A program made the translations under genes and the position numbers. A DNA stretch of 64,000 nt, taken from contig NQMI01000109.1 of assembly GCA_002270565.1 (NCBI GenBank), positions 94,899 through 158,898 of the forward strand, given 5' to 3'. The notes under the pieces were generated by a model that saw nothing but the letters and a program-made list of their open reading frames with translations, did no database searches and was not told the DNA's origin. Position 1 is the stretch's first letter, and each line of letters begins with the position of its first letter. Below are positions 7,957 to 54,004 of the stretch, one piece after another. The DNA is from Stenocarpella maydis. Taxonomy: Eukaryota > Ascomycota > Sordariomycetes > Diaporthales > Diaporthaceae.

Positions 7957-8553
7957 TGTTAAACGGAACCGCTCAGCAGGGCGTTGGTCCTCCGTGCAAG
8001 GAGTTACCCTAGACTTCGTTGCAAGGAGTTACCCTAGCTCTTCTAGCAAGGAGTTACCCTAGACTTTTGATGTCAGGCCATTTTCGCTAAGTACGCCCAG
8101 TGCGTGCGTGATGCAAGATGAAGTTTGGTGCCGTAGAGTCGATTATTTTAGCCTGCTTTTACACCTTAATTCAGACTCTTTTGCATTACCCTTATTTCTC
8201 ACCAAAAAGTAAATATATAATTAGGCATTAGATAGCCTAATTTCTGAAGTTTATATATACCTAATTTGGGTATTGCTAGCGCTATTGTTGGCTGGTTCTT
8301 GGAACTAAAGATGGTGTTGGAAGGGCGAATTTTCGGCATTTGCAAATTTGCACCAGAGCCTATCGCAGCGTGCCCAGGGGTGAGAGGATCGGAGGGTATA
8401 TAAGGAGGGCTTACAGAAGCCCAACTTAATTCAATACAAAGTTGTCCAGACCATTGTCAATCGTCCGAATTCGCCTCAGAGCACCATACTGCGACCCTGC
8501 CGAAACACACACACGCTGAACTGAATGCTATTCTATAGCACAACTTCATCAGA
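7957..8553 (+). mobile_element. Solo LTR of a Ty3/gypsy-type element (TGTTAAACGG family)
   Basis: This 597-bp sequence starts TGTTAAACGGAACCGCTCAG and ends TTCATCAGA, like copies at 49380-49945 and 54712-55305. It carries three tandem ~22-bp units of (G)CAAGGAGTTACCCTAGACTT near its start. No matching 5-bp duplication is visible: GTATT lies on the left and ACTTG on the right. It lies inside the TIR element, so it inserted later. Confidence 0.8.
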
Positions 8554-9123: not shown

Positions 9124-12100
9124 ATGAGCCAAAACCCCTCACTTCAAAACTCACCTACCAGGGCAAACAAACCCGGAGGAGGCATGGCGGGCCTCGTCAA
9201 GCTTGCAGGCGTGTGGCTAGCTGCAACCCAAGATGATGACATTTCGATGTTGAGCACCCATCTTGGTGCCCTAGTCCAAGTGCTCCGAGGCATCCAAGAG
9301 GCATTGGCGCTCGAGAAGCGGTCACAGCCTGACGGCTTCGCCCTTAATCTCATTGACGAGCTTTTGGGAGCCCACACACATATTCTTACGGAGGTAGACG
9401 AATACCATGGATCAGTGAACGGCGATGCCGCAGACGCGGCCGAAATGGGCGTCAAAATGAAGAAGAAGCTCCTCAAGCTCGTCAACACCTTGACGATTGG
9501 CGTGCATCTGGCACAGTGCACAAATAGGTAAGCGGAGACACCCTCTGTTCGGACTGGCGAAACGTGTCCGCCGACTAGGCATATGTATATATATCTGATA
9601 CTAGACCGAAGTGAAGTGAAGGCGGCCATGGTTCAGTTGATCCAAACGCAGTTGGAAGATTCGTGCAAGTGGATCTACAAGCAGGAAATCTATCCCCCAA
9701 TTCTGCCCATGACGGACTCGGAGAAAATGCGACTTAGTTTCAGGTTATACGAGGCGGAGCTGGTGACCACGTCCGGGCGCGCGGCGCGAGCCACCTACAC
9801 CCTCGTGTGCCCAGGTGCGGCCCTTCCCACGGTAGACGACGATGGGAGACTGCCATCCGAGCTTCAGTTTCGCTGTCTATGCCATGTTGATAATCACACC
9901 AGCGCTTTGAGGTACAATGGTGAGCCACTTCGTGTCTGTTCCGCCAAGAACGACAGGACAATAACATACAGCAGTCTTGGCGAAGCAGCCCGAGCTTGCC
10001 ATTCCAGTGGAGGAAGCTGGGCCGTACTCGGCTGTAATTTACAGGATGATACTGAGCAAGGCGGACGCCACGGTCTCAGTACGCTTGTCGAACCTCCTGC
10101 CAATCCGTACGGTCTAGGACAACCCCGTGGGATGGAACATAGGTGTTGCGCTGACAGGAGACATGCAGATTTTGGCCAACTCGAAAGACTCTTCAACAGA
10201 CTCGCGGCGGCCTTGATCAGGCGGATGCGGAAGGGCAGTGATCAGGAGATCGAAAGTCGCACGGGTGAAGCACTGTGGATCCGTCCGGACAGAGTGAGCG
10301 TTTTGCGAACAAGGAGGTTAGTTAGTCTTGACATTGCGTCGTGACCGTTGAACGTGCAGAGCCGATGGGTATTCTTCTATACTAATACAGACATACAGCA
10401 CTGCTCCGTTGCAAGGGTTGAAGATCCTTTCGTGCGAATTAAAGGTTGAGCAAATTGGCCGCCGCCCTCAAGTACTGCCCCTCGTCTCGGTGAAGCCTCC
10501 ATACATCTACTGGCAGATTCTTCATTACGCCACCAGCCCCAAATATTCAGTAATTTCATCCGGAGACGAAATTTCAGACTCATTCTTTTCGAACGAACCC
10601 TTCTTCATTCTCGTCATTAGCAAGCAACTTCCGTCAAAGATTTTGCCCCACGAATTATACAAGATCAAAAGTAAGGCATCACAGATGATCTGCTAGGCAA
10701 CCCTCTCTGACAGGGAATGTCTTCTAGTATCCAATGAAAATGTCATTAGAGAGGAAGATGGAGAAAACATCGTTACTATCTCAGACGTTGACTGTATCTC
10801 GGAAATCTACCAAAAGGACCGGTCTCTAGCTCCGAGAGTTATTCACGGGCATTGCGCGTCGGTCCAGATCAAGTTTATGAATTCAAATGACGGCACATAC
10901 ACTGGCACAGGTTCGGGAGGGCAGTATCATTCCTGACAGATGCCCACAAGACTGACATACGTTAGCTTCTGGAACTTTCATCAGGAACATCGAATACATG
11001 AAGAACATATTAGGTTATAAAGCATGCCAAATGCCGCTTCAAGGAGAGGAGATTGTCTACCAGCAGTAAGATTTGCCTCCCCCCCCCTTGTATGCGAGGG
11101 GAAGATATTTTTCGGTATTCGCGACCCTAATCGAAGGGCAGCTCCTCTATCAATGTGTTCTCTGAATCTGCCCCCGCCATCGGTGCACCACGTGTCACTG
11201 TTGTCCACAATCCCAAAGCTCAAGTGGGTAGTTATCGCTATATCGTGGCTTATGGCCCGGATGGTGGGACCATCTGCTTTGAATGTAAGCAGAGTCCAAT
11301 GACGCCATGACAAGATTATAGAACAATGGATAAGCCTGGAAGGAAACTGATGACACTTGACTGTGATAGTGGACTCGATATCGCCGCAAGCTGCCCCCGA
11401 TGGGTGGGCCAAGCTTTTCACCTCCAAATTTGCCCTGGTGGTCTATCGTACAAGCTCCGGGGCACTACTTATGGAGAGAAAGTCATGGGAAGAGCTTGAG
11501 GAACGCCCCATAAAGCGACGAGCCAAGACGAGTAGCCTTGATACAACCACATTTAGCATCAAAAGGTACATATACTATCCTTTTCACGTTCCCTTCGGCG
11601 CCTTCGTCTCCAACTCCGGGATGCCGTGAGCGGTACCAAGTGTATAGGGTCAGGACAAACATATAAGCTGACTTATTTACCTCAGGGAGAATGAAAACTC
11701 ATCTACCCGGTGGTTTGACGAACTTGCAGACACCGTTGACATCCTACAAGCCAAAAAGGGACTCGTGGATAAGGATGAGATGAAGTTGTACAAGCGTGTT
11801 AAGATCGCCGTGATCGATACAGGATTCACGAGTAACACACAAGATCCTAGAGATCCAAGAAACACTGCGCGCAAGGCTATTATCAAGTACAGAGACTTTG
11901 TTACCCGGCCGAAGCCAACTGTCCCGGAAGGTACAAAGCACAAGGGCCCAGTCGAAGAACCCATGGACGACCCTTTGACTTCCATGCGCGACGACGCGTC
12001 AGACACGCATGGCACCGTGATCGTGGAGCTGGTCCTCAAGGTCTACAGAGATGCTGAGCTGTACGTGGCCCGCACCTTGAGACACAACACGGGGAGCAAG

Positions 12101-12839
12101 GAAGAACTGAAGGGCCAGCCAGTCCTAATGGCAGATGTGAGCCACCACCTAGCCATCGGCATTGTCCCAGCTGCCGTCTCGTTTTCCTTGTCGCTAACCA
12201 TGCGTCGACCCTTATCAGGCAATTAATTGGGCAGCTGCTCACAAGGTCGACATCATCAACATCTCTGCCGGCTTCAAGACGTGCCCTCTCGCCCTGCACA
12301 GGGCCGTCCGCGACGCCCACGCCGCCGGGATCCTCATCTTCGCCTCCCCGGGAAACTGGGCACGCTTGTACCCCGTCGCCTTCCCCGCGAGGCTCAGCGG
12401 CGTCACCTGCGTCTTTGCGACGACCGCCGGGCTCATCAACACGGACCAGATCAACCCGGAGCCCCTCCGGCACACGCACAACTTTGCCCTGCTCGGCAGG
12501 GACATTCTGCACCGCGGCGTGCCCTTCGACGGGACGTCTCCCGCCACGGCCATCGCGTCGGGGTTTGCGGCGAGGATATTGGACTTCATCAGACAGCCCG
12601 AGGTCAGGGACCTGGACAACGTGGAGCTGCTGGCAACCAAGGCGGGCATGGCGGCCGTCTTCCAGAAGCTGGCGAACTTGCACCAGGGTTATGATTGCGT
12701 GCATCCGGGAAGGATTGGTGCCTTGAACTGGGACGAAAGCAAAGATGACGATGAGGCGGAAAGGAAGAAGAAACGCAGAAGGGCAGTGATGAAGTTGCTT
12801 GTGGCCGTGTTGTACGACATGTGCAGTATTGAGAGATGA
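9124..12839 (+). CDS. Intracellular subtilisin-like serine protease (S8) with large N-terminal region; HET-Q2-like candidate
   Basis: Exons 9124-9527, 9579-9919, 9972-10106, 10169-10316, 10399-10670, 10728-10910, 10966-11065, 11142-11284, 11370-11565, 11686-12136 and 12219-12839 join in phase to 997 codons. Most introns are 50-120 bp with GT-AG ends; the donor at 10911 (GTTCGG) is weak. The catalytic triad is visible: Asp about 685 (VIDTGF), His about 749 (DTHGT) and Ser about 898 (GTSPATAIASG), with Asn in the oxyanion-region motif SPGNW. There is no signal peptide or pro-domain, so a cytosolic enzyme is expected. Residues 1-640 include a part resembling the DUF7580-type N-terminal domain of fungal STAND/het-related proteins (about 110-260) and a further unassigned domain. 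Fungal S8 proteins of this kind cleave linked gasdermin-like proteins; the candidate partner lies at 16668-17734. The protease domain is certain; the HET-Q2 role is inferred. Confidence 0.85.
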
Positions 12840-12886
12840 GGTAAATCTGAACTAGGATGTTTTGTTCCTGATCAGATCACAAACAT

Positions 12887-12894
12887 NNNNNNNN
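12887..12894. other. Assembly gap (8 N)
   Basis: Eight Ns just after the protease stop codon. The true distance to the following repeat is unknown. Confidence 0.95.
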
Positions 12895-15845
12895 GTAAAG
12901 ACCCTTGCCTCTACCCTTAAGATTGTATATCTTAATATTTATTATAAAGGCCTTGTAAAGCGATAATTTATAGACCTAGTTTTATAAAAGGATTGTATTC
13001 GGCTGGAAATAAGTGTAGATGCCCTCTTTATGGATAGGAGGAGGATTGTATGTTTTGAAGACCCTAATGATAAAAGGCGATTGCTCCCTACCCTTTCCCT
13101 TCTCTTCTTAGCTTGGTTAAGGAGGAGAAGATATAGTGATGGTGAAGTTTATCTGATTAGAGAGGCTTAATAGTTTAATAATGAGATTAATAATTAATAG
13201 TTAATAATGCTGTTGGGGGGAAGTTAAAGAAAAGGATTAGTAGGGGAAAAGCGACTTTAAATATGAAAAGTTGGAGAGGGGAGCTCTTATCAGAAGCATT
13301 TAAAGTAGTAAAGGTTGCTACCTAGCAGAAAAGGGAAGGAAGTTGAGTGATTTACTAGCTTAAGTGATTCACCCATCTTGAGGCTCCCCTTTTAATAAAA
13401 GCCTACCTTTTTGCTATAACCTCTAACCCAACTACTTCTTCTATAACTACTATACCTTGGCTGATCTCTAATTAGCGCAGCATAACTTGCATCATTAAGA
13501 CTTAAAAGCTGCTGTAACCATTAACCTCTACCCTTAAAACTTATCACCTCCCCTCCATTACTTAATTTCTCCTTGCCTTAGCACCCTTTTCTCTTGGTCT
13601 GACTGATTAGAAAGATGTCTTCCTTAAGCCAGCAAACGATAAAGAAAGGTGAGGGAAAGAAGAAGGGATCCCCATTAATCTAGTTCACAGCTATTAACAG
13701 TCCAAAAGGCCAAGTCAGCCCCATAAATGATCCCAACACCCCCGTGCCTACTATCAAGTACCCAGACCCTTCTGATCAGGTTAGCCTCAAAGCATGACTT
13801 TCAGCATTACCCTTTATCACGAATTTTAATGATATTAACCCTATATAGCAGCTAAGATTTCCCAACCCATGCAATATCTGCAATTAAGGAAACTAGGATC
13901 ATAGAGCTAGTATAGATCTAATAAAAGACCCGTTTAAAACTAGAATCCTTAATAATAGGTTAGCACTCTCTCAAGCTTTTAATATATCAGACCTTTTAAT
14001 ACAACCACCATTCTTTCAGAACTAAAAATAAGGGCACAGTGATCATGCGTAGTAGGTAATAGATATATATTTTAAGGGCATTAATCCCTATCCTCAGTTT
14101 AGAGACCCCCCTAGGCAGAAGAACCTATTTAGCACTTACTATAGTAACTTCCTTATGACCCTTTATAATGCAGAAGGTCTCCTAACTCAAGAAGCATGCC
14201 TATATACTAATCATATTCTAGGGCTTATTAATTAGCAGCTGATTAATTTTAGCAACCTAGTCTTTATAGTGCCCATAACCTATAATATTAATGGAGAACC
14301 CCCCAGATCATAGAGATACCACTCACTAAAGGACAGCCAGAGGTTCATCATTCAAGTTATGCATACCCCAGGCCATTAGGTATTAAGCATCTTCAATAGG
14401 GATACCAAATGACTCAGTATAATTAATACTCATCCTGATCGGAGAACTTGTGATAGGATGTACCCCTGTATAAGGGACTGTATTGCATACTTCCTTACCC
14501 TTGGGCTACCTGAAGGATTCTCAAAACAGGCATGCATGGCGATCCAAGTAAAGGTCACGCTACAGCTGGGATCAACTGCCTGTAGACTCCTTGTGGCTAC
14601 CTATGTTGCCTTTTTCTTTCGGGAGAATTGTGGAAAGAATGGCTAGGAGTTTGGAGACTGGATTAAGACCAGGCTGCTTGAATCCGCCCCTTCTGGCTTA
14701 CCCGCTAAGAAAGCCTTAGCTCTTATCTGGGGTTTTACTATCCGATTAGAAATTAATGAATCCAGGCATCCGATTAGGGGCATTCAGAATACTCTAGTTA
14801 TTAGCTATAATAAGTATAAGAGGCTTATAGCAGGAAAGAATGTTATATACTCTCAAGCTGATATCTTAGGGATGAATAAGGGGGAGACTAAGTATTGCGC
14901 TATACCTGGTATGGGATTAAAACCGGGATAAAATCTGCTAGGCTTCCTTATAGCAAGATTTAATAAGGCTGATCTTTTAAGGCCTACTAATATCCGGACT
15001 TCCAGATCAAGCAAAACTCCTATTACCCCTAATAGCTTAAAGAACCGGCCACCTATCCTAACATCTAAGATACCTAATGTGGCTATAAAGGATCTAATTA
15101 TGATATTTGGGCTTGGACTTTATAAGGACTCATCCAAGACACCTGAGCCTCTACCTTAGGCAGATGGGGTATGGACATATGGAGAAGATAGTCTTGGGAT
15201 ACTAAGTGAAGCGAGAACTGCTCTACAGACGCCTAATCGGAGCAGGGCTGGAATGCTATAGGGTGACCCTATTAAACTTCTCTTGTAGCAGATATTAGAG
15301 GCAAGTATTAGGAATATATCCCTAGGAGGAAATATAAATATAGGTGGGATGACCCCTAAGCAATCAGGTATCTTAAGGTCTTTATTATTATCTCTGTTCT
15401 TTATTCTGGCTATGCTGCTATTATATTGCCCATCGCCTGCTGTGATAAGAATTATAATGATTTAGGAGTATAACTAGAATGTAAGTAAGTGGGTAGGAAT
15501 TGAGGAAGCAAATTGCTGGGTTCCTATACCGGCAATTAGTAACAGCTATTAATCCTAAGCTTATAAAAAGGCGGCTGAGCGAGAGGAGAAGGATTGCAGA
15601 CTAAATGTGCTACAGCAGAACAAGAGTAGGGATAAGCGGGCTAGGAATTAAGAGCTATAAAGGGTCCAATAGAGCTGAATTTAGGTGGCTTATCTGATTA
15701 GAGGAGGAAAGTAATTTTGGTTGTTTTAAGCGGACTATTACTTGTTCTTTATAATGGTCTAGAGAGGGGTGTGTTCTGGGGTCTAGGGAAACCGGCATGT
15801 TTTGGAATCTAGAGGAAAACCAGCCTTAGTATTCCCCCCCCCCCT
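12895..15845 (+). mobile_element. RIP-inactivated repeat element between protease and gasdermin-like genes
   Basis: AT-rich DNA begins right after the gap. It contains the long TAG/TAA-broken frame at 13615-15679 and ends near a tail shared in inverted orientation with 1904-1964. No terminal repeats could be paired because the left edge is at the gap. Its stop pattern and repeat sharing show a transposable element. Confidence 0.6.
13615..15679 (+). pseudogene. Ulp1/C48-like cysteine protease ORF of a transposon, RIP-stopped
   Basis: From ATG 13615 one frame of about 690 codons runs with stops only at TAG/TAA positions expected from CAG, CAA or TGG. In the middle is a Ulp1-like catalytic layout: PGH followed by a stop where Trp is expected (about 14377), then VLSIFN and SIINTHPDR (about 14380-14445), and LQLGSTAC (about 14560-14583). 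This gives His, Asn/Asp, Gln and Cys in order. After the Cys an AGA codon replaces the expected Gly codon GGA, a G-to-A change. The C-terminus is Lys/Glu-rich and helical. Ulp1-like domains travel with several eukaryotic DNA transposons; no transposase domain was identified here. Confidence 0.55.
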
Positions 15846-16667
15846 CCCGGATATAAAAAAAAGGCTGTGACGGACCCTGAATAAAATTATATACGCTCAA
15901 ACGCTCAGTATTCAACATGGATATAGTTTTAATAATGGTTCTTTTCGACATATAATAGCCTATCACTAAGAAAATACAGCCAGTCTCATCACGAGACTGG
16001 TTGAGTCTGAACTAGATGTGCATGATCAGACACATGTGCAAGTTCACTCTTTGCAAGCCAGCCGGGACTGAGTCCCATACTTTATACGTACCTATATACT
16101 ATAACGTAATATATGATAATTAGCCTTGATTATTAAATCAACAGTCCCGACTTTTTACCTAATATTAGAAATTGTCATGATATACTAAAGGGGTAGGAGG
16201 GGGGTGCCTTAGGTTGTGGCGTCACACTTTGAAGTTACACAACAAAAATAATAATAATAATATATAAAATTATTTCATCATGAAACCCTTTAAAGCACCT
16301 CTATAAATGCTGCTATCGTAGAGGAATCAGCCAGCGGCGTAACCGTTGCCATAGGTATCAATGTAGACCGGATCGGGCATCGCTAAGCGCGAGCCCGTGT
16401 ATAAGATATATCCTGATAGCGTATGAGAAAATCAATTCAGCTTGATCCGCATCAATTTGGAAGTGGGAACCGGATGCTACGTGAGCATGCGGTCTGATGC
16501 TACTGCAGAATCATCTTCAGGACCATATACGAAGGCTCGGTCGTAGTCAGGGCCACGGCTTGGTCTGAATACCTAGGTGGTCTCTGCAACAGTGCAAGCT
16601 TCCATATCAGGCGAGATCGTGTGCTGGGCCTTTTAAATTGTCTGGACCGGCTTTGTTTGTTGACGAC
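15846..16667. other. Intergenic, no gene recognised
   Basis: Contains a C-run (about 15835-15846), a moderately AT-rich stretch and then unique-looking DNA downstream of the gasdermin-like stop. No supported coding region or RNA gene was seen. Confidence 0.5.
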
Positions 16668-17734
16668 TCAGGCCTCCGACACCATCAGCTTCCCTATTTG
16701 CAGCCCGAGAGCCTCTTCAGCAGCAGCCCCAAACGGAACCCGCTGCCAGTGCTGCTGCTGGCCTTCATCGTCATCATCAATAATGGCTAAGCCAGCCTCC
16801 TCATCTTCAATGACCTTGAAACGGTCCAGGCCCTCGGCGGCCACAGTATGATAGACATCAAGGTCCTCTGCCTCTGCGGCAAAGGTAGCACGCGAGGTGT
16901 AGGTGTCGAGGGTCCAGTCATTCATCAGCCGCCCCTTATGGACCTTGGCAAGGCGGACTGCCCAGATAAAGTCCGACTTGAGCTCACCCCCAAATTTCTG
17001 GACATGGCCGCGAGACACATTGGTATTGGCGCTGCCAAATGCAACAGTGGGTATTTCACTTTGTTTAACATGATTAACTTCCGTTTCTTCAGATGTAGGA
17101 GACGCAACAAGAAACAAGAAGAATGTACGCACAGTTCAGTCTGGCCCTTGACCGTGGTCTTGTCCGAGACTGCAGTTGTCTTCTTACCATGCCTTGCAAC
17201 CTTGACCCCCGTGACCATGAACATGGACCATCCCTTCTTACCCTCTACCTCCTTGGCCAGTTTCTTCTTCTCCCCCTCCCCGCCGGCTACCTTCGCCTTC
17301 AAAGCCTCCACTTGCTCACCCAGCTTCTCCCCCTCCAGGCAGTCCGCCACGTAGCTCTTATCCGGCTGGCAGATGTACGTGTCCAGCCTGTCGTACTCCT
17401 CCCAGTTCTTGACGCTCTTCTGGAAGATAACCTGGATACTGGCCTTGATTACCAGGCCCATGAGCGCAGCAATGGGAGCCCCGCCGCCGAGCCCGCCGCC
17501 CGTCGTGGCCGAGTCGGCGTCGTGCCACTTAAAATGCAGAGACTCTGTCGGATAGACGGGCATGTTGGATGGGAACTCCTCGATCTCGCCCCCGTTAAGG
17601 ACGAAGTCGAGGCGCTTGAGCGACGAGATGAAGTGGCCTAGGCAGAGCGGGGCTGTCTCTCGCCCGGTGCCCATGGCAGCTTCATCTTCGGGAGGATAGT
17701 GGGTCTGCCGGAGCTTGAACCAGACTTTTTCCAT
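16668..17734 (-). CDS. Gasdermin-like pore-forming protein candidate (HET-Q1/RCD-1-type)
   Basis: Exon 1 is 17734-17133 and exon 2 is 17058-16668. The 74-bp GT-AG intron (GTGCGT donor, CAAAG acceptor) is the only in-phase solution I found and gives 330 aa. The layout follows the fungal gasdermin-like family: N-terminal WFKLRQTHYPPE, then LGHFI..LKRLDFVLN, a Gly/Ala-rich hydrophobic hairpin region (about 75-100), SVFMITG-like SMFMVTGVKVARHG, and SDFIWAVRLAKVHKGRL followed by SRATF at about residue 260. About 70 acidic residues follow and would be the regulatory tail removed on activation. There is no signal peptide. The family assignment is from memory of the pattern; the alternative is a conserved fungal protein of unknown function. 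It lies convergent to the S8 protease and shares a promoter with the VIT-vWA gene. Confidence 0.55.
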
Positions 17735-18104: not shown

Positions 18105-18255
18105 GCCGAGTTCGTAGACAAGTCAGCACTGGCCGATCCAGCCGGCTGCTGCTTCGCGCAGACCCACTGTTAGTGGCGAAGAACAACGAATACGGCGCTT
18201 GACATTTGCTTCCTGATTCTCTGTCTTCGAGGCTCTGGCTGTTCAAAGAGCCAAC

Positions 18256-21200
18256 ATGAGTCGACGCCTCCGGGTTGAGCGACTGCCCTCCGGGGTGCAC
18301 TTCCCGGCCACGAGCCAGAAGCGGATCTACGATCCGAACAAACAAGTGGTCAAGGCGAAGGTCAAGCAATTTTCAAGAAACACCCAGCTCGCCAGCTCAG
18401 AAAAATATGAAGCCAAATGGGTCCCAAACATCCAGGGGGAGGCATACGATGGCGAAGGAGTCGCTTTTTCACCCTACTACCCAGTCTTCACGATAATGCC
18501 TCCTAAAATTCATCAAATAGGTCAACCTTATTCAACCACGACGCCAAATCCACCTCCGCCGGAGCCTGTAACGCTCTGTCTGCCCCTCTTGAGCGTTTCC
18601 GTGCACGTGCAGGTTGACGGCACCGTCGCTCGCACCACGCTCGTCCAAAAATTCACCAACAAAGCCGACGAGCTCATCCCCAAGGCCACGTACACTTTTC
18701 CGCTATACTCGGGCGCCGTCGTGACATCTTTCCAATACAAAGTCGATGGGAAGACCCTCATCGGAGAGGTTAGGCCTAAAAAGGAGGCCAGGAGCGAATT
18801 TAACAATGCGGTCGAGAAGAAGAAGGCAGCGGCGCTTGTGGAGGAGCAGACGCCCGAGATTTTCGAGACATTGTTAGGCAACATCTCGGCCAACGCAGAA
18901 GTGGAGGTACACATCACTTACGTGAGCGAGCTGCGCGTCGCCATGGTTGACCATGATGGCACGGGGAGGGACCTCGATGTCGTGATACCCATGTCCATCG
19001 CTCCGAGATACCGCCCTCTTCAGAGCGAAGCCAACGACGCCAACGACGCCGAGTTTGAGGGACCTCTCGAGTTTGACAAGAACGGGCTCGTCATCGACAT
19101 TGAGGTGAACGACAACGGCACAATCCTCGACATGCAGTCGCCGACTCATGGACGCGCAGTCGAAATCAAAGACAACGTCACGGCCAAGACGGTCGTAGTA
19201 TCGACACCCGACCAACTATTTGGAAGCGACTCGAAGCCAGCCGGAACACAGCGCGTCGCTTCGTACAATTCCGACGCTGTTCTCGATGGGGACTTCATAC
19301 TGACCATCTCGGTGAGGCCGGAGTACGTGCTGCGGTCCCGTGCCGTCCTCTCGCCCCCCAACGACCACGGGCACGCCGCGCTCATGATCAGCATCAAGCC
19401 GAGCGACATGTTCGAGTACGACTACCGGCCAGACACATTCAACGGCGAGGTCATCTTCGTCCTCGACCGCTCCGGGTCCATGGGCGAGAGCTTCCAGACG
19501 CCACTCGTGAGGCGTGGCTCTGTGACCAAGATCGGCACGCTCCGCGCCGCCCTGCCCCTGGCCCTGAGCAGCCTGCCTCCAGACTGCGCCTTCAACTTCA
19601 TCTCATTCGGGTCAGACAGGGAGCTCATGTGGGAGGAGTCGAGGCCGTACTCAAAAGACGCCGTAAAGTACGCGAAGGACTACATCAGGACGGTAAAGGC
19701 AAACATGGGCGGCACAGAGCTGCTGCTCGCGATGCAGGACGCCGTGGAGTCGCGGTCAGAAACCAGATCATCCACCCAGATCATCGTCATCACGGACGGC
19801 GAGGTGGATGACTTGGGCATCACGGACTTTGTGCTCCAGACGCGCAGGGACTGCGGGGACAGGGTCCGCTTCTTCGCGCTCGGGATCGGCGACGAGGTCT
19901 CGCACCTCCTCGTCGAGAGCATAGGCGAGTTCGGCGGCGGGTACGGTGAGGTTGTCAACCTCGCGGCCAAGCCCCAGTGGCAGGACCGGCTGGGCCGCAT
20001 GCTGCGCCTCGGCGTCACGCACAGCAGCTGGGACGTCGACATCAGCCTCGGCCCCGGCTTCCAGAGGCGGAGCCTGCTCGACTACCGCATCCCCGAGGAG
20101 CCGCGGAAGACACAGATGAATGCCGTCCCCTACATCCAAGCGCCCTACCCTGCCCCATATTTCCACCCCTTCACCTTCCACTCCGTCTTCTTCCTTCTTG
20201 ATATCGGCTCCAGGCCCCCGCCCGGGGAGGTGACCCTGACCCCTAAGAACACGACCTCCAGATCCGCCCGCCCTCACCCCCTTGACATCCAGCCGGCTTG
20301 GACAGACCACACCACCATCCACCACCTCGCCGTGAAGGCGCTCCTTGACTCCCTCCAGTCCGAAGTCGCCCAGGCCGACCCCGAGCCGGCGGTGAGCAAT
20401 CTGGCCCGTGAGAATGCCGAGTCCCTCGGCAAGATGTACACTATCGCTAGCAAGTGGACGAGCTTCGTGGCCGTGGACAGGGCAGCCGATAAGGTCATGG
20501 ATGAAATCAGCATCGACAAGGCAGACATGCTAGCCATCGACCTCGCGGCGATGCAGGTTATATCGGAGGAGCAGGGCGGGTTCTTGCCCTTCCCCTATTC
20601 AGTTGATATTCCGCGGAATCCAACTGCATTAAAAGCATTACAACACCTCTGGACGAGATCGTCTGAAAAGTTCAGGCATGGGCGAAGCAGGTCACGGTCT
20701 CGGAGCCAGGAGGAGAGGGAGGAGATGCAGATTATATCGGAGGAGCAGCGCGGGTTCTCGCCCTTCCCAGGTGCTGGTGCAGCTTCGGCTTCTATGCGGA
20801 ATCCATCACCTGACTCTAAGGTGAGTTCGCATCATGAGCGACGCGCGAAAAGGGCTGTCGCTTCAAAGAGCGGCGTGCAAATTGATTCCGTGCTCGATAC
20901 AGAGCTTGATTTTGAGTCGTCGACTAGTAGTGAGAGTAGTAGAGACACAAGTAGAGAGCGGCGCGTTAGTGACACATCGGAGGCGCGGAAGGAGGAGGTA
21001 AAAAGAGTGATGGACGTGTCACGAAACTCGAGCAGAGAGAGGATCCAGGACAGTGTGTCGAAGGGACGGGAACGGGGAGAGCAAAGGGATCGGCCTGATG
21101 TACCGGTAATGGGCGAGGAGGGAGCCCTGAACCTCCATGCTGAATCTGTGGAGGAGAAAGCTAAAGGTGGTGTGAGAAACACGGAGACCCTTGAAGCGGG

Positions 21201-22582
21201 TAAGAGCGAATTTTCCAGCATCTATCGCTAACCCATCTTACGGTAATGGCAGAGCTGACAGATATGCAGAGCCATCAAAAGAAACTGAGGTAGGAGAGGA
21301 GCCCTACGCCAGCGAGAAACTCGACACCGTCAAAGCCGAAGTCGCCCAAGACCCCGGATTCGACATGGAAACCGAGACTCAGCCTCTTATTGTAGACTTT
21401 CAGCGCTCGTCCGGCAGCCTTGCCGACGCAGATGGATCTGGCTGTCTTTCTCTCCCAGTGACGCCTCCTATCGACGACAGACTTGACGAGTGTACGCCAT
21501 GGCAGCCATCTATGGAGGACGAGAGGCCATTGGGGACGGCAGAAACACCAATCGCAAGTCTTGCCCGTCGAAGAATACTTGCATTCGTCAATGAGGACGA
21601 GGACGAGGAGGGCTCCTATGGAGATGATTCCAAAACCTACTCCGAATATTGGAGCGGAAGCATCGACGACGACGAGTATGAGGATGACGAATCCATCACG
21701 GATCGAGATCCCACATCCAACGCCGTTGACTGGAAGGAAGCCGTGGAGGCCCAGTTGGAGGGGCCAAGCGGGTTGTTCGAGTTCCCTGCCGATTTGGCTT
21801 GTTCCGATGTCGACGGCTCTATCCCGTCGGCAAGGGAGAGGCTGTACACGCACTTCTGCCCTGGTCTCGTGCCAAAACTCAAAAGATTGCTCTCGATGTT
21901 CACAGGGGACCCAAGGACTACAGCAGGGCTAGAGTTGTCGGAAGAAACGAAGGGACGGATCGTCGATACGCTGCTCATGATGCATTACTTCAAGATCCAC
22001 ATGCCCCACGACCGGAATCTGTGGGACATGGTGGTGGACAAGGCCGATCGGGCCGTGGCCGAAACGCTAGATCCGCCGGCGGAGCAGCAGACCACCGACC
22101 GGGCCACGGGGAAAGAAGCCGAGCCAGAGGAGGAGGAGGAGGCCGCTGCCCGGGAACAGGCGGCGTCCAGAACCAAGGAGGGATCGGAAGCAGACCCGTC
22201 AGAGGGCCGCGGAGACACGCCCAAAGCGGAAGCCCTCCTCGACACCCTGGCCAGCATCATTAGCTCCTCCGCCCAGCACGCACACTACCTCCCCAATGAA
22301 CAACACCCCCCCTCCGACGCGGACGAGTCCCAGCCCGGTCCGTTCCCACCTTCCGCCCTCCTCAAGGTCTGCCTTGCCTGCGACACCGCAGCAGCACTGA
22401 GCTCCGCGCCCGCCCGCGGCGGAGAAGGTAGTTCGCAACTCTCTTGTCCCTTCGATGGCTGTGGGTCGTCCAACAGGGCATGGGATTCATGGGAGGAGCT
22501 GTGGGATCACCAACTTGCGGATGGCCATGTCGTGTGCCGGGAGAGGGAGTGGATGGGCAATCTGCAGGATGAGTTTGAGTAG
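18256..22582 (+). CDS. VIT and von Willebrand A domain protein with C2H2-like C-terminus
   Basis: Exons 18256-21199 and 21255-22582 (55-bp intron, GTAAGA...CAGAG) join in phase to 1423 aa. Residues about 100-225 form a VIT domain (LPLLSVSVHVQVDGTVARTT; LIGEVRPKKEARSEF). A vWA domain starts near 395 with a complete MIDAS motif DRSGS (FVLDRSGSMGE). A conserved helical part follows near 680-760 (LAVKALLDSL, WTSFVAVDR). The rest is Ser/Arg- and Asp/Glu-rich and probably disordered. The last 40 residues hold CPFDGCGSS...WDHQLADGH, spaced like a C2H2 zinc finger. With no signal peptide, an intracellular scaffold or metal-dependent adhesion role is likely. Fungal VIT-vWA proteins have no settled function. 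The exon 2 linkage is inferred from splice phase. Confidence 0.85.
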
Positions 22583-28448: not shown

Positions 28449-30180
28449 CTAAGAACAGAAGGTCCCATTGTTGCAGCCCTGGGGGTGAACAGGCACCGTG
28501 AACGACTGCGGCTGCTTCCTCGCGAGCGGGTCCAGCAGCGTCGGGGTGCCGGTCAGGGTGAAGTTGAAGGTCAGGCGCGAGTCGTAGTCGAGCATCATCT
28601 CGTAGTCGCCCGGGTAGAGCATCAGGTCGCCGTCCGAGTTGGCGCGCGCCAGCGCGCCGAGGTTGAGGCTGAGCGACACCTCCTGCGACGCCCCGGGGGC
28701 CACGCCGTGCGCGCGCGCGTACGAGGCGAGCCACTTGTTGGGGAAGGGCGAGGGCCCCGCGTTGGGGGTCCGGAGGAACAGCAGGGCCACGTAGTCGGAG
28801 GCGGCCCTGCCGGTGTTGTGGACGTTGACGCTGACGGTCGTCCACGGCGAGGCGTCGTTGACCGAGGGCGCGCGGCCGGAGGAGCTGCCGCCGGGGATGA
28901 GGCTGCTGATGGCGTACGAGGCGCTCGGCTTGGTCCCCCAGGAGTAGCTGAAGGTTGTGTAGTGCAGCCCGTAGCCGAACGGCAGCACTGGCTCCTTGCT
29001 GTACCACTTGTATGTCCGGCCGGGGGAGGAGCTGCTCGGGCGGAGGTTGGGGTCGAAGAGCGAGACCTCGTTGATATAGTCGGCTGGGTACTGTGTCGTC
29101 GTCAGTCGCCCGGCGATGGGCTGCTTGCCGACGAGGACATCAATGAGCGCGCTGCCGCCCTCCTGGCCTAAAGACGGGGGATCAACATGTTAGCATACTC
29201 TATCCCAGGCACTCTAACCCCCCCCCCCCACCCGCCAACATGCTCGTGATACATACCGGGATATCCGCCCCACACAAGAGAGTTAACCTTGGTGTTGTTT
29301 AGCAGCGCGCTGTCGTCTATCTGCCCGCCGCCAAACTGCACGACCACGAGGGGCTTGCCCAGCTCCGACAGCTGCCGCACCAGGTCGAGCTGGTTGCCCG
29401 GCCAGGCGATGCTGGTGCGGTCCATGCCCTCGGCCTCGATGCTCACGTCGATGCCGCCCGCGTAGATGACGACGTCGGCTGCCTTGGCTGCGGCGAGGGC
29501 AGTAGCAAAGCCCGAGGTGTCAGAGCTGTCGATGGCGGTGCCCAGGGCGTAGGTCACGTCGGACCACTGCGCTCTTGCTGCCTTGAGCGGGCTGATGAGG
29601 TACGGCGCGATGCCTTGGTAGTTCCCCTGCATCTGGGTGGTCGCGTTGGCCCACGGCCCGATCAGGGCGACTGACCCGTACGAGGTCTTGAGGGGGAGCA
29701 GCCCGTCGTTCTTCAGCAGCGTCATGCCCTCCCATGCGGCTTGGTACGCCACAGACTGGGCCGACGGCGTACCGACGTTGGACCAGGACAGGGAGTCGTA
29801 CTCGGGCTGCCCGTCGAAGTATCCGACGGTGAACAGGGCATTGTACAGCCTGGTCAAGGAGAGGTCCATTTGCTTCTCCGTCGTGAAGTTGTTTGCCACA
29901 GAGACGTTGAGGACGTTGTAAGAACTCCCGCAGTTGGTGTCTGTGCCCGCGTTGAGGGCCACCGCCGCCGCCGCCGCCACACTATCAGTGAAGTTGTGAG
30001 GCTCATAGATGTCGTCCACGGCGGCACAGTCCGAGGTAACGTAATGGTATGGCTCGCTGAAGCCCCACGAGTCGCGGAGGACGTCCTGCAGAAGGTACTC
30101 GTTGGCGCAGGACGGCACTGCAGCATCGGTCAGCTCTAGCTCTAGCTACGCGCACCAAGTCATCACATATATATATATGC

Positions 30181-30228
<48 letters not shown>

Positions 30229-31446
30229 ATAGTGTTTGCTCACCTCCATCGACGGCATTGTAGGCACACATTATACTGCCTACTTTGACGTCCCTGACGC
30301 ACGTCTTGAATGGTTGCAAGTAATACTCGCCCAAGTCCTGTTGGGTTGGGTCGTAGTTCTGTCCATGGCGGTTGGTCTCGACATCATACACGGCAAAGTG
30401 CTTGCAGGTCTACCAATAGAACGTCCGCCGTCAGCTACCCGGACTCAGTGACATGAGACTTCCATGCTTACCGCGATGATCTGCTTGCTGTGGGTGTTCT
30501 GGAGACCACCCTGGAGCCCGGGGATGAGCTGCGCAACATAGCTCTGAACGTGGAAGCTATCCTCGGAGGGCACCTCGAGGCCTCGCCCCCACCGCGGGTC
30601 CAAGAAGGTGTTGATATTTGGGGTCCAGAAGTCGAACCCGGATTGCATGTAATTGGCAAAGGCACGAGCCTCCATTCCGACAGTAGAAGCAACCTTGTGG
30701 ATCAGGGCGTCGTCGAACGCGGCCCCCATGAGGATAGGTTCCGGGAAGCTCGTGGCATAGCTGAAATTTGAGCCGTTTGGCGAGTTGAAGGTGACGCCTG
30801 GGCTCGCGGCGACGCCGTGCAAGGCCTCTGACCACCACTCATAAGCCGGCAGCCCAAGCCTCGGCACGCCAGCCGCAGAGTTGACCATGTTCGTGGCCTT
30901 CTCCTCGACGGACATCTGTGCGAGAAGTGCCGCGATGCGCTCGTCCTGTGTGAGAGAGGCATCGCAAGCCTTGTTGGCGCAGAAGGGGTTCGTGTGGCAG
31001 ACGGCTTCCCGGCGGGCCGTCTGCGGCGGCGGGTTGGGATTGGGGTTGCTGATGGCGTACAGGTTCATAAAGTAGGTGCCCCCGCATACTTCGGAGGGAC
31101 TGCCAGGACACGAGTATGAGCAGGTGCTCGAGTTCTGAGAGACCTTGGACGCAATCGGGTTGATGCTGTTGCCACAAAAGCACTGTGTCGTATATTCGGT
31201 ACCCGACAGGTTGTAGCCCATATAGCCACAGGTATTGGCGCAGGTTTGGGCGTCATTTTGGGCAATGCTAATTTGCTTCCCATCCAGTGTACGCGTGGTG
31301 CCGTCGGTGTAGCATCCCAGGGACGTGAAGGAGGCGTTGAAGTCCTGTATGGGATTTATGCCAGTGCACACGAAGCTGCTGTTCTGAGCCAGGCTCCTGG
31401 TTCCGAGCAACAGCAGAAGACTGCTCAATACAAGATGACCGTGCAT
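28449..31446 (-). CDS. Secreted GH3 beta-xylosidase with N-terminal WSC domain
   Basis: Exons 31446-30472, 30409-30244, 30117-29257 and 29167-28449 join in phase to 906 aa. It starts with a signal peptide (hydrophobic LVLSSLLLLLGTRSLAQ). A Cys-rich WSC domain follows at about 38-135 (LGCYTDG, CFCGNSI, CPGSPSEVCGG), a carbohydrate-binding module. The GH3 body has EWWSEALHGVA, DPRWGRGLE, TCKHFAVYD and the nucleophile Asp near 410 in YVTSDCAAVDDIY, then the second GH3 domain (QGNYQG, GQEGGSAL) and a C-terminal fibronectin-III-like domain (LPFGYGLHYTTFSY). The family releases xylose from xylo-oligosaccharides outside the cell. Many N-glycosylation sites (NxS/T) are visible. Confidence 0.92.
30158..30228. 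repeat. (TA)n/(TG)n microsatellite in an intron
   Basis: About 10 TA-type units followed by about 20 TG units lie within the second intron of the GH3 gene (30118-30243). Confidence 0.9.
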
Positions 31447-33368
31447 GGTGTAGTGCTGCTACAGAACAGTGATATCGTCGTTGAAGAGAGACATAACTCA
31501 GGAAGATGTGCCTTATTTGTATGGCATGAGATCCAGGTAGCCGTACCCTGAGTGGTATCTTTTTCAATCCATCTATACGCTCCAATAGAGTTTGTACCTT
31601 ACAGGCCGGCTAAATTAAAATTGTTAGTGATCGATATGCATGTTAAACACCCTGGCGTCGGCAGGCCCCGCGCTCAAATGCAACCATGAACTATAATCTT
31701 TCCGTCTTCCCGGCTTCGCGATCACGAGGCTTATATCCACCTCGTATTCACCGGCGACAGTCCAATTGATCAGATGCCATACGCAGGCAGGCAAGGCTCT
31801 TTCCGTCAGCTAAGCTAGTCTTTATTGTAGGTGCTTCAGGTTGCGTGACATATGAAGTTATTTGCTTACATACCTACTCAAGTAGGTAGACTTCAGGAGG
31901 TATAATTTCACCGCCTGGGCACTTAAACAGCCTGGCCCCTCAAATTACAAACTGAATAATGCAACGACCATCGGATTGACAGGCACTAATCTCCCAAGTT
32001 CAGCCTAAATGTATATAGACTTTTCCTGGTTTCTATCAAACTCGAATATGTGGGTAGCCCATCCGCCTAGTTGGCATTACGAGCCCCGCAACCTTATTTG
32101 CGGGGATCGTGCATGTTGTATGGCGCATGTCGGCGTTCTACTTATACCGAAGCCTTTCCAAAGTATTCGAGCAAATCACGCATGTGGGATGAAGTCGGGC
32201 ATTGGTCTCAGTGTGCAACTAGCTTCTCACTTGTAAGCGCACCAAGAAATGGGATGGGAATATGATCAAGTTCTTACGACCAGGTGACGTCTTCATCTCG
32301 GGGTAAGTGATGGCATGATGTACCGTAGACCCTCCCCTCAGGCCACCGCCCATTGCCGCCCGTTCCGGCTCTCCTTGGTACCTACAATAGACAAGTTCTG
32401 TTCTAGAACAAGAGCCGACACCCCACACATGTACACTCACAGGTCTGCCTCTGGCCAACCATATCGAATACCGGCCTCGCCAAACTCTGGGTCGTCTCGA
32501 TCTGTATCACCAGGGGTAGTCAGCGTAGGTAATAACGGCTGTTTCCGATCGTCACTCCACCGTGGAGCCTGCACGCCAAGACGGGACAAGCTTGAACAAG
32601 CTCACTATAATACCAAGTAAGCTCACTACACCCTAGCCAAGCAGCCTGTCAACTCCGGCCCGGCCGAAAGTGCCCGTGGAACACATTTGCGGGATTCAAC
32701 CACACCACCTCTTCAGCTGTGGACGAAAAGTCGACAACGAGAGCCGAAGTGGGATCGTACTGCGCATGTACTAGATAGTCTGGTCGCGGTGGTCGCGGCA
32801 GGCGTAGTGGTGGCCAAGATATAAGAGGATGGACTATATATCTTGTGGTGTTGGACATGGAGCAGTGAGATAAGTCACCAAAGTCGCGGATAGGGTGCCC
32901 TTCGAAGACGTCCAACTTGGGCCCGTTTCATCAAGTCCGTTCTGACATGCTGACAATAACAGATTATTCTGACTGGCCCTCCAGTGCCGTACCATCTCTA
33001 CGTACCGACACTGGGCCCCTCGCCCGTCCGGACCGCCATTTCGTAGTACCTGGCGCCTTTGTGTCACCAGCGCGACTGCAGCCTACGAAAATGAAAGAAA
33101 AACGAAAACGAGTAGCCTACGCCACACCAAATCTAGCTATGCAGGTCATTAGGTTATGGAATTAGTTGTTGCGCAAGCTAGGTGCTGCCTTGGAGCCGGG
33201 CCAGATCAGCCACCGCCCTCGGCAACGTCGGTCACCCTTCCGACTTTGCTCCCAAGATACAACATATGTAGCGTTCAGGTCGTTTCCCCGCCTGGCTCTT
33301 CTCGCACGCATTTTGCAGCCCCTTCCATTGTCAAACTCTTTCTCGCGAGACCCCGTGCAAACTTCAAG
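31447..33368. other. Intergenic, no gene recognised
   Basis: A divergent intergenic region between the xylosidase and the small secreted protein. Short ORFs exist on both strands but show no motif, signal peptide or splice-supported structure. Confidence 0.55.
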
Positions 33369-47591: not shown

Positions 47592-49374
47592 GAATCCCTA
47601 CTTAGGACATCAGTCTCTAGAACATCAACCATAAAGGAGGGGAGACCTATTATAACCTGCTAAGCCATATCAGCATTATAAGCATATAACTCTAGTTAGT
47701 TATAAGACTATAGTAAGACATAAGGTTAAAAGAAACTATAAGATAATTAATTACAAGGTAATAATACTAAAATAAATAATATTAAACCTATAAATAAGAA
47801 ATTTTAAATAGTTAAATAATAATATTATTAAAATTATTATCTATAATATAATATCTTAATATTATAAACTAATATATTATATATTTAAAAGTTTGTTTTA
47901 ATAACTCGAATAATTAAAAATAAATACTATAATATAACTTTATAAAATATAATTTATTAATGAATAAATTATTTTAGGAAGTATATTAAGTTTATATTAT
48001 TTACTAACTTAAATTAATCTTAATATTTCGCTAAAGCTAAGTAATTAATACTAACTATACTTAATTCGTTAATTTAATTATTTTACTGATTTAAAGATAT
48101 GAATAAAGCTATATTATTAATTTAGATAAGCTAACCTTTATTAAAAGATTATATTTCATATTAATTTATATTAACTCTACTTTTAAATTCCTAAATTATT
48201 ATAAATTACTAATATATATATATTTACATTAATTAGTATTAATTAAGCTAAATATATTATAATATAATTAAAATTATATTTCTTAATCTTTTTCGTTTCT
48301 TTCCTATATACTTTTATAATATATCTAACCATATTGTAATTATTATAACGTGATTTATTTAATCCATTATAAATTAACTTCTTAATATTAGTATTAATTT
48401 TCCTAACTAGGTACTTGTTTTTAATTAATACTTAAGAGTTTTTAATATTAAATATTCTTCAAGCTATATTTAAGTTTTTTTAGCTTTTCAAGATTTAAAA
48501 ACTATTATATTATCCTTTTTTAAAATATAAACTTAGTTTTTATAAAAACATAATATTATTTATTATTACTTTTATATTCTTTATTATTTACTTCAAAGCT
48601 AGGATAATTAATATAAGAACGCTGTTTCAATATATAAAAACTTTAGTTTTAATAAAACTTAATTATTAAATACTTTAAAAAAAACTATTAAAAGTATTTA
48701 AAACTCTTATTATTAAAAGAAATAGAAACAAGTAATATTAGAGTTTTTAAGTAAATATTAAATATAAAAAACAATTCTAAATCCTTAGGTAGGATTTTAG
48801 CTTTCGTAAATATAGCTATTTTATTACTTTTATACAAGCTTAAATAACGTACTTAATTTCTTTATTTTATATATACTTAAAGGGTAAATATAATATAATA
48901 TTTAATACTTAAGTTAAATGAAACATAACACAATAATACATAAAAAATGATAATAATATTTCTTTCCAATATTATTTAAATTTAATTAATATATAGTTTG
49001 AATAATTATTTCTAATTAATATTTAATAATTTATATTTCTTTAAAGTCTTATATTTATTAACAGATTAAATTTATTTTAAGCTAATCTTATTATGGATAT
49101 TTTGTTAAAATAAAATGAATTACCTAAAAGATAGAGAAACTTGAATTTATAATTTACCTTAAAGATAGTAAATAATTCAAATAATAATAAATCTTAAATT
49201 ATATTATCTTATTATATTAATGTATTTAGTATTTATCACTTATTTCTAAATATTAAGTTAATAAATTTAGCTTTTGTAAGTCTATTAATTTATGTAAGTA
49301 TTATTATATGGGTCTATTTAGCATCTAATTATATACTTAGAGTACTATCCTAAGTCTACCTATTATATATTTAG
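47592..49374. repeat. RIP-type AT-rich block
   Basis: The DNA turns abruptly AT-rich after a purine tract AAAGGAGGGGAGAC (47634-47647) and TATTATAACC, which looks like a polypurine tract and mutated LTR start. It is almost only A/T with no ORFs, as expected for heavily RIP-mutated repeats. Confidence 0.75.
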
Positions 49375-49379
49375 GTATT

Positions 49380-49945
49380 TGTTAAACGGAACCGCTCAGC
49401 AAGGAGTTACCCTAGACTTCTTGCAAGGAGTTACCCTAGACTTTTTAGCAAGGAGTTACACTAGGCTTGCGAGTCGGGCGATTTTCGCTAAGTACGCCCA
49501 GTGCGTGCGTGACGCAAGAGAGTTGGGGGCCGTGAGTCGTTATTTTGGCCTGCTTTTGCACCTTAATTCAGACCTCTGCATTACCCTTATTTCTTACCAA
49601 AAAGTATATGACTTAGTGCATTTGATAGCCTGATTTCTGAATTTTGTATGTACTTAATTTCGGCATTGCTAGGGCTGGGTTTGCTAGTTGCTTGGAACTA
49701 AAGATGGTGTGTTTGAAGGGCGAATTTTCCGGCATTTGCCAATTTGCACCAGAGCCTACCGCAGCGTGCCAGGGGTGAGACGACGTTGGAGGGAATATAA
49801 GGAGGGCCTACAGAAGCCCAACTTAATTAAAACAAAGTTGTCCAGACCATTGTTTGTCCATACCAATTGTGTATAAGAGACATACTGCGACCCTGCCGAA
49901 ACACACGCTGAACTGAATGCTATTCTATAGCACAAATTCATCAGA
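49380..49945 (+). mobile_element. Solo gypsy-type LTR with perfect 5-bp target duplication
   Basis: 566 bp, TGTTAAACGG...TTCATCAGA, flanked by GTATT on both sides (49375-49379 and 49946-49950). Three ~22-bp CAAGGAGTTACCCTAGACTT units lie at the left. Its composition is normal although it sits in an AT-only block, so it inserted after that block was mutated. Confidence 0.9.
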
Positions 49946-49950
49946 GTATT

Positions 49951-51175
49951 CTATTCTTATCCTTGTTCTATTTTAAACCTATTCTAGCCTTATTCTAGCT
50001 ATTTTTATTATATTTTTCCAGACTTTTAGCTCTATTATAGTATTATCCTGGCTGTATCCGTATAGTTTATTATATATTTATCCTATGTTTTAGCTGTATC
50101 CTTATACTAGTCCTAAAGTCGTATTATATATTAAAATAATAAAAATATTTCTTTTTATATATTACCTTTTTCTTATATCTTTTATACATTCTAAGTTTTA
50201 GGTTATCTTTTTATATATATTTTAGTCCCTCATTTAAATTTATAGGTATCTTATACTTTTTTTTTTTGTCTCATTATATATTTAGTATACCCTTTGGGCA
50301 ATAGCAGTGTGCAACAGCACACTGGTGACTAGCGCTACAGCCACAATACTGTAGCCAGAGGACGTAGTTGCTTACTCTTAACCACTACGTTTGTATAAGA
50401 CAGGATAGGTGGCGATAAACTTACCTAATACTCCTAGATAGAGGATTTTTCCCATAAACCCCAATCGTATTGCAATACGGGACCCAGCCAAACCCTTATA
50501 ATCTTCTTAGTATTCTTTTATATTTATATTTTCTATTAATTTAAATTAATTTATTAAGGTTAATCTTAAGTTTAACTCCAATATAATTTTCGAAGATATA
50601 TTATTTATACCTTTTTACTTTTTATATAATAAGGTTTATAAAGCTAATTCCTTTATATTATATAAACTTTTTTATTTAGCCTATTTATAAAAGCTTTTAC
50701 GTAAATCTTAAGGGTATTTATAACTATAAGACATTTTAAGATATAATCAGGATTCTTCTTTATATATATATTTATTATTATTTTATATTAACTAAAAAAA
50801 AAATAAAAAAATAAATATTTATTATTAGTCTTCCTAAAGTACTATAAATTAATACTAATAATAATATAAAAAAATTTAATTAATTAAACATAATATTTAT
50901 TTAAATATATAAATATATTATTTATAATTCTTTTAGTAAGGTCTATTAGTGGTTTTATAATATGCTTAACGTTTACTTTTTTTTTATATACTCTTTTTTT
51001 AACTCTAATAGATAATATTACTTTAATTTAAAGTAGTTATATAATTATTTATATACCTTAATAATAATAATTTAATATAATAAGTTCTTTTAGTATACAA
51101 CATTTAATAAAAAACAAAAAAAAAAAAAAAAAAAAAACATAATATTATCTTTAGTAATTTTTTATATATTATTTT
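49951..51175. repeat. AT-rich block containing a solo copia-type LTR
   Basis: Same AT-rich character as 47.6-49.4 kb, without coding frames, interrupted by the LTR at 50294-50491. It ends with a run of A (51118-51137). Confidence 0.75.
50294..50491 (+). mobile_element. Solo LTR of the Ty1/copia element, 5-bp target duplication
   Basis: About 198 bp, matching the LTRs at 51176-51355, 59934-60144 and 60865-61077 (GCAATAGCAGTGTGCAA...CCCAATCGTATTGCAATACG). It is flanked by ACCCT (50289-50293 and 50492-50496). Confidence 0.85.
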
Positions 51176-51355
51176 TGTGGCAATAGCAGTGTGCAACAGC
51201 ATACTGGTGGCTAGTTATCCCTTACTGTTTTTGTTATTGCTTCAACCTTTTTAACCGAGATAGCTGGCATGCTACACCCACTACACCAACTACTCCTAGA
51301 TAGAGAATTTTAACAATAACCCCCAATCGTATTGCAATACGTGACCCAGCCAACA
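51176..51355 (+). repeat. 5' LTR of the copia element
   Basis: 180 bp, shorter than the 3' LTR by a small internal deletion around 51215-51240. Starts TGTGGCAATAG and ends CAGCCAACA. Confidence 0.85.
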
Positions 51356-51880
51356 CTGATCAGTGGTTGCAAGGGCGACCACAGATTAGCAAGGTTGAAG
51401 AGACAAGCCCTGCTTTAATAGTAGCTTGTATGGTACTGATGGTACTGCCCCTTGAAGAGACTTTAGCGGATTCCATATAATGCTATAGTGGACTTTAATG
51501 ATATTGTTACTACCTATCGTGAGGCAAAGAGGGCTCTATATGCACTACGCTATACTCTATCTTCGTTAAACGCATATTTATTACGCCCTGAGTATTATTA
51601 GAAGGCAACCGCGGAATGTAAATACTGTATAATATTACTAACCCCCGCTACTCTTAAAGATAATGCTGAAGATATCACCACTTTAGCACACATCAGCAAT
51701 CAACTGGTAACAACCCTGGTAACAGCTATACTAACTGAGGTTAACTCCACCAGCCGGCACATCTTCACTACCCCCTGCTAATAAGCTTACCCCTATATAC
51801 TTACTACCCCTTGTTACCATTTATTTAACCCCTACTTTGCCCTAGCACACCCCTATTATTAACTATACAACCCATATATT

Positions 51881-53600: not shown

Positions 53601-54004
53601 TGTTAAACGGAACCGCTCAGCAGGGCGTTGGCACTTCCTGCAAGGAGTTACCCTAGACTTCTTGTAAGGAGTTACCCTAGACTTCTAGTAAGGAGTTACC
53701 CTAGACTTCTTGCGAGTCAGGCGATTTTCGCTGAGTACGCCTAGTGCGTGCGCGACGCAAGATGAGTTTGGTGGCCGTGAGTCGATTATTTTGGCCTGCA
53801 TTTGCACCTTAATTCAGACCTCTGCATTACCCTTATTTCTTACCCAAAAAGTATATGACCTAGTGCATTGGATAGCTTGATTTCTGAAGTTTATATGTAC
53901 TTAATTTGGGTATTGCTAGGGCTATGGTTGGCTGGTTGCTTAGAACCAAAGATGGTGTGTTGGAAGGGCGAATTTTCCGGCATTTGCAAATTTGCACCAG
54001 AGCC
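53601..54004 (+). mobile_element. Gypsy-type LTR fragment, plus orientation
   Basis: The first ~404 bp of the TGTTAAACGG LTR, with the three 22-bp repeats. It stops abruptly at the N (54005), inside GCACCAGAGCC. It is inverted relative to 54712-55305. Confidence 0.85.

What the first reader, a model, noticed from the sequence alone, without database searches (positions are those of the whole stretch)
9124..17734. Candidate gasdermin/protease cell-death pair
Seen: an S8 subtilase gene with an intact triad and no signal peptide (9124-12839, +), and convergent to it a 330-aa gene (16668-17734, -) with the layout of fungal gasdermin-like proteins. Known: in Podospora, the gasdermin-like HET-Q1 is cut and activated by the subtilisin-like HET-Q2, and such genes are often neighbours in fungi. 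Inferred: this locus is such a heterokaryon-incompatibility or immune-like module, with cleavage near the Phe of SRATF (about residue 260), releasing an acidic tail.
Basis: partly seen in the sequence, partly recalled or inferred. Interest (0 to 1): 0.88.

Follow-up and report, generated by a model that had tools for sequence, protein, structure and literature searches.

The report
Fungal gasdermin with its protease partner
This stretch of a fungal genome holds a pore-forming cell-death protein next to the protein-cutting enzyme that probably switches it on; such pairs are already known in many fungi, so this is a good but ordinary new example.

Summary
The minus-strand gene (17734-16668, two exons, 330 aa) is a fungal gasdermin: it matches Neurospora RCD-1 (E 1.2e-35) and a close homologue folds like RCD-1. 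The plus-strand gene (9124-12839) is read through by an intact multi-exon model of about 985 aa: an unannotated N-terminal region of about 620 aa and a C-terminal S8 subtilase with its Asp, His, Asn and Ser. The pair is conserved: 7 of 13 S8 homologues share a longest-contig length with a homologue of this gasdermin, 4 of them with consecutive locus tags, and divergence of the two genes correlates over eight pairs. A multicopy 2.96-kb repeat separates the genes here; without it they would lie under 1 kb apart. Most likely the S8 protein is a receptor-protease that clips the gasdermin near Phe260, releasing an acidic 70-aa tail and freeing a pore-former that kills the cell. Cleavage, trigger and any heterokaryon-incompatibility role are inferred, not shown. 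It is a new member of the known fGSDM/Q2L two-gene clusters; the S8 protein's N-terminal region, absent from Pfam, is the least-known part.

The parts
16668..17734 (-). fungal gasdermin gene, 330 aa; exon 1 17734-17133, exon 2 17058-16668
   Evidence: splice model; RCD-1-1 8jyz_A E 1.2e-35; 99 homologues
17059..17132 (-). 74-nt intron of the gasdermin gene
   Evidence: recovered by spliced alignment of P0001 and P0002
16671..16880 (-). codons of the C-terminal tail after Phe260 (70 aa, net charge -14), proposed inhibitory fragment
   Evidence: tail and charge; 60 of 60 homologues with the motif have a net negative tail, median 42 aa; coordinates worked out from the exon 2 frame
17249..17311 (-). 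63 nt coding a 21-aa insertion, or a possible extra intron
   Evidence: longer insertions at the same spot in P0005 and P0006
9124..12839 (+). S8 receptor-protease gene (Q2L type), about 985 aa, 11 exons; 5 of 10 intron boundaries provisional
9124..11565 (+). exons 1-9, N-terminal region of about 628 aa without a Pfam match (proposed sensor)
   Evidence: homologous to P0100 and P0104
11686..12839 (+). exons 10-11, S8 subtilase domain with D673, H737, N825, S886
12896..15859 (.). dispersed repeat of about 2.96 kb inserted between the two genes
   Evidence: 39 further copies of 2.6-3.0 kb at 86-89% identity among the scored matches; edges from L020 and L021

Best explanation
A two-gene fungal pyroptosis-like module. 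The S8 gene encodes a cytosolic receptor-protease: a sensor-like N-terminal region of about 620 aa holds a C-terminal subtilase in check (inferred). On an unknown cue the subtilase cuts the neighbouring gasdermin in a flexible linker, most likely after Phe260, removing a short acidic inhibitory tail (inferred from HET-Q1/HET-Q2). The 1-260 fragment then oligomerises into a plasma-membrane pore and kills the cell (inferred from RCD-1 and HET-Q1). Shown here: the two families, the intact reading frames, the catalytic residues, the gasdermin fold of a close homologue, the conserved Phe and acidic tail, and conserved linkage with correlated divergence. Not shown: cleavage, toxicity, trigger, or biological role.
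Against: No experiment. The HET-Q1 alignment stops before its cleavage site (chain residue 209), so equivalence of F260 with F238 rests on position and conservation. RCD-1, the closest solved relative, works without a protease (PMC12881547). Linkage in three of the seven pairs rests on equal contig length alone; 6 of 13 S8 hits have no gasdermin hit with their contig length, though both searches score only proteins that share short words with the query. The window's two genes are 3.8 kb apart because of a repeat. Without the Ophiocordyceps pairs the correlation falls to r 0.63, 3 of 120 relabellings, and the IQ-TREE gasdermin tree does not resolve window, F. euwallaceae and Exophiala (bootstrap 33 and 39).
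Confidence: 0.85

Rival explanations
1. The gasdermin acts like RCD-1, by allelic partnering without proteolysis, and the S8 gene next door is incidental.
For: Closest solved relative is RCD-1, which is activated by co-expression of two allelic variants (PMC12881547, passages; PMC11760362, passages).
Against: RCD-1 lacks an inhibitory C-terminal domain (PMC11760362); this protein and the measured homologues keep an acidic tail behind a conserved Phe. Linkage to S8 recurs in three ascomycete classes (classes).
Confidence: 0.06
2. The module is decaying: one gene no longer yields a working product, for example because of the repeat insertion.
For: A multicopy repeat lies between the genes and AT-rich stretches lie in both flanks of the window; 5 of 10 S8 intron boundaries are uncertain.
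Against: Spliced alignments cross both genes with no stop or frameshift, and the catalytic residues are intact. The repeat lies outside both coding regions.
Confidence: 0.1
3. The S8 gene is an ordinary secreted or vacuolar subtilase.
For: The genome has many S8 genes: 43 exon-level matches, most presumably of ordinary kinds.
Against: No propeptide domain found, and a long N-terminal region shared with gasdermin-linked S8 proteins.
Confidence: 0.03

Closest known systems
fGSDM/Q2L two-gene clusters of ascomycetes (Clave et al. 2022, paper not held; known here through passages of reviews PMC10197012, PMC12881547, PMC10989679)
   Same: gasdermin and S8 protease genes side by side, short C-terminal tail on the gasdermin, long protease with an extra N-terminal region
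   Different: the N-terminal region has no Pfam match, so none of the annotated repeat, NLR or kinase-like modules could be assigned; a multicopy repeat sits between the genes
HET-Q1/HET-Q2 of Podospora anserina
   Same: S8 protease plus gasdermin; a Phe before a short tail (F238 in HET-Q1 by the reviews, F260 here)
   Different: HET-Q2 is 388 aa and het-Q1/het-Q2 are idiomorphs (PMC10989679, PMC12881547); here both genes lie in one genome and the protease is about 985 aa; the gasdermin is only remotely similar to HET-Q1
RCD-1 of Neurospora crassa
   Same: closest gasdermin of solved structure
   Different: RCD-1 is shorter (257 and 244 aa), lacks an inhibitory C-terminal domain and is not controlled by proteolysis (PMC11760362, PMC12881547)
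Fusarium euwallaceae BHE90_010298/010299 and Exophiala spinifera PV08_07586/07585 pairs
   Same: best and second-best homologues of both genes, consecutive locus tags
   Different: named only hypothetical proteins in the listing; their exact spacing and orientation could not be read here

Membership tests
fungal gasdermin (fGSDM) | sequence homology to RCD-1 over the pore-forming domain | tested here: met
   phmmer E 1.2e-35, query 1-257; profile E 3.9e-65
fungal gasdermin (fGSDM) | gasdermin fold | tested here: met
fungal gasdermin (fGSDM) | pore formation and cell killing | not testable with these tools
   needs expression
Q2L (HET-Q2-like) receptor-protease | S8 subtilase domain with catalytic Asp, His, Ser | tested here: met
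   Pfam E 1.5e-14 on the spliced model; D673 H737 S886, oxyanion N825; labels of the roles are recalled
Q2L (HET-Q2-like) receptor-protease | gene within 10 kb of an fGSDM gene | tested here: met
   3.8 kb between stop codons; linkage recurs in relatives
Q2L (HET-Q2-like) receptor-protease | annotated ANK, TPR, WD40, NLR or kinase-like module | tested here: inconclusive
   Pfam finds only S8 in the spliced model, and only S8 above cut-off in P0100, P0101 and P0103-P0111; P0102, P0112 and P0113 carry DUF7580. The AF2 model of P0104 is too weak in that region. PMC10197012 says roughly a third of about 1500 Q2L sequences have annotated architectures
HET-Q1 type proteolytic activation | Phe P1 residue followed by a short inhibitory tail | tested here: inconclusive
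   conserved F260 (58 of 64) and net negative tail (60 of 60); cleavage not shown and the alignment to HET-Q1 ends before F238
heterokaryon-incompatibility (het) locus | allelic or idiomorphic polymorphism that kills fused cells | not testable with these tools
   one genome only; PMC12881547 states that the vast majority of fGSDMs are not involved in allorecognition

The most novel reading that the evidence does not exclude
The roughly 620-aa N-terminal region defines an undescribed sensor family (a helical bundle followed by beta-rich modules in a low-confidence model, absent from Pfam) that travels with RCD-1-type gasdermins as one unit across ascomycete classes, by horizontal transfer or long-lived haplotypes. 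In that reading protease-independent RCD-1 would be a derived form that lost its tail and its protease. In both gene trees Fusarium oxysporum (Sordariomycetes) groups with Stagonosporopsis (Dothideomycetes) at bootstrap 100.
Probability: 0.2. Interest if true: 0.55.

Novelty: new member of a known kind. Interest (0 to 1): 0.32.

Why it matters
It adds an apparently intact pair in which an RCD-1-type gasdermin keeps a tail and a linked protease, useful for asking how RCD-1 came to work without proteolysis. It also points to a sensor region whose ligand is unknown; PMC12881547 calls the nature of the stimuli for these sensors a major open question.

Tried and rejected
Tried without result: Rfam scan of the window (0 matches); Pfam on the gasdermin and on seven raw S8 frames, which do not cover every exon (only the last S8 piece matched; the spliced model was scanned); AF2 of the whole S8 homologue P0104 (mean pLDDT 55.8, the middle of the N-terminal region mostly below 50), so no fold is claimed for the sensor. 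Its structure comparison showed only subtilases in the 50 rows listed, over residues 616-949. An own-genome search with a divergent gasdermin homologue, P0097, gave this gene and three matches at E 0.7-3.2, taken as chance. A PDB search with P0113 listed its best 60 of 116 matches, all subtilases, so it says nothing on its gasdermin-like end.

Considered and rejected: an ordinary secreted subtilase; RCD-1-like activation without protease (kept as a rival); a pseudogene reading of the S8 gene (its out-of-frame pieces are explained by introns).

The first S8 query was a rough joining of open frames, later replaced by the spliced model; P0100, P0101 and P0102 came from it (P0100 and P0101 came back). 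One search scored only the 7995 candidates sharing most words. The correlation test drops the 6 of 13 S8 hits without a partner. Papers were seen as passages only or as listings.

Full report
What is there. The window belongs to a 53.5-Mb genome in 312 contigs. Its name is not given; gene structure and homologues point to an ascomycete fungus (inference). On the minus strand, exons 17734-17133 and 17058-16668 join over a 74-nt intron into a 330-aa protein. Against all PDB chains the 4 distinct sequences matched with E up to 10 are all RCD-1, best E 1.2e-35 over residues 1-257. A search of 5.8 billion proteins gave 99 homologues; the best are from Fusarium euwallaceae and Exophiala spinifera, 57% identical each. 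A profile of 31 sequences also reaches the HET-Q1 pore chain 9uv9_A at E 1.6e-7, so the protein is an fGSDM closest to RCD-1 and only remotely HET-Q1-like.

The proposed cleavage site. F260 of SRATF is Phe in 58 of the 64 homologues that have a residue in that column; the other six are L (2), W (2), M and Y; 35 of 99 have a gap there, mostly proteins of about 180-250 aa. By a motif search 60 of 99 could be measured (F in 54): tail median 42 residues, range 38-190, net charge negative in 60 of 60, median -11. The window tail is 70 residues with charge -14, the longest in the alignment of 31 though not among the 60. Reviews report that HET-Q2 removes about 40 residues from HET-Q1 after F238 (PMC10989679, passages). 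F260 is probably the counterpart, but the HET-Q1 alignment ends too early to test this.

Linkage. Of 13 S8 homologues, 7 have the same longest-contig length as a gasdermin homologue, and 4 of these have consecutive locus tags: F. euwallaceae BHE90_010298/010299, E. spinifera PV08_07586/07585, Stagonosporopsis vannaccii SVAN01_11866/11865 and Ophiocordyceps unilateralis XA68_13557/13556. The other three, known only by equal contig length, are F. oxysporum f. sp. conglutinans (5258184) and two Ophiocordyceps (523894 and 214379). Six have no such match: P0101, P0107, P0108, P0109, P0112 and P0113. P0113 (Cudoniella acicularis, 1219 aa) has an S8 domain and a gasdermin-like stretch at about residues 1040-1183, either a fusion or a merged gene model. 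The best and second-best relatives of both genes come from the same two species. Over eight pairs the identity matrices correlate at r 0.92, with 11 of 40320 relabellings as high. With one Ophiocordyceps only, r is 0.70-0.78 (3, 5 and 3 of 720), and with none r is 0.63 (3 of 120). Both IQ-TREE trees group F. oxysporum (Sordariomycetes) with Stagonosporopsis (Dothideomycetes) at bootstrap 100, while F. euwallaceae (Sordariomycetes) is elsewhere; the gasdermin tree leaves window, F. euwallaceae and Exophiala unresolved (33 and 39). This fits inheritance of the pair as a unit against the species tree, by old paralogy or transfer.

The gap. The 3.8 kb between stop codons is mostly a repeat, 12896 to about 15859. 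The own-genome search found 272 candidates and scored 40; the 45 rows listed are the window, 39 further copies of 2.6-3.0 kb at 86-89% identity and 5 shorter pieces (edges). Without it the genes would be under 1 kb apart. In this genome only this gasdermin was found, while S8 gives 43 exon-level matches; two other places resemble P0100 in the S8 domain alone.

How it compares. About 80% of fGSDM genes lie beside protease genes and about 63% beside S8 genes (PMC10197012, passages; PMC10989679 gives approximately 60% for S8). PMC12881547 (passages) describes the proteases as multidomain sensors and notes that the vast majority of fGSDMs are not involved in allorecognition and that het-Q1 and het-Q2 are idiomorphs. 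The primary papers of 2020 and 2022 were not held. The locus therefore belongs to a known kind, and an immune-like cell-death role is more likely than heterokaryon incompatibility as such. The sensor region, the repeat insertion and the joint inheritance are the only unusual parts.

Noticed in passing
window 12896-15859: Dispersed repeat of about 2.96 kb; 39 further copies of 2.6-3.0 kb at 86-89% identity among the scored matches in the genome; its left edge abuts a short run of N.
   Followed up: partly
window 18217-21231: VIT plus von Willebrand A domain protein (1004-aa frame), head to head with the gasdermin gene; its link to the module was not tested.
   Followed up: no
P0113 (Cudoniella acicularis G7Y89_g4593): One predicted protein with DUF7580, S8 protease and a gasdermin-like stretch near the C-terminus: a fused activator and executioner, or two merged gene models.
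   Followed up: partly
window 29171-31458: Glycoside hydrolase family 3 pieces on the minus strand with an N-terminal WSC domain, probably one gene.
   Followed up: no
window 7995-8066, 49398-49468, 53633-53712, 55196-55267: The same 24-25-nt tandem unit (CAAGGAGTTACCCTAGACTTCT or its complement) recurs as arrays of about three copies at four places, perhaps part of a transposon.
   Followed up: no
window 48001-52000: Very AT-rich stretch (24-29% GC) beside a long region of 53-63% GC, as in genomes with RIP-type mutated repeats (recalled pattern, not tested).
   Followed up: no
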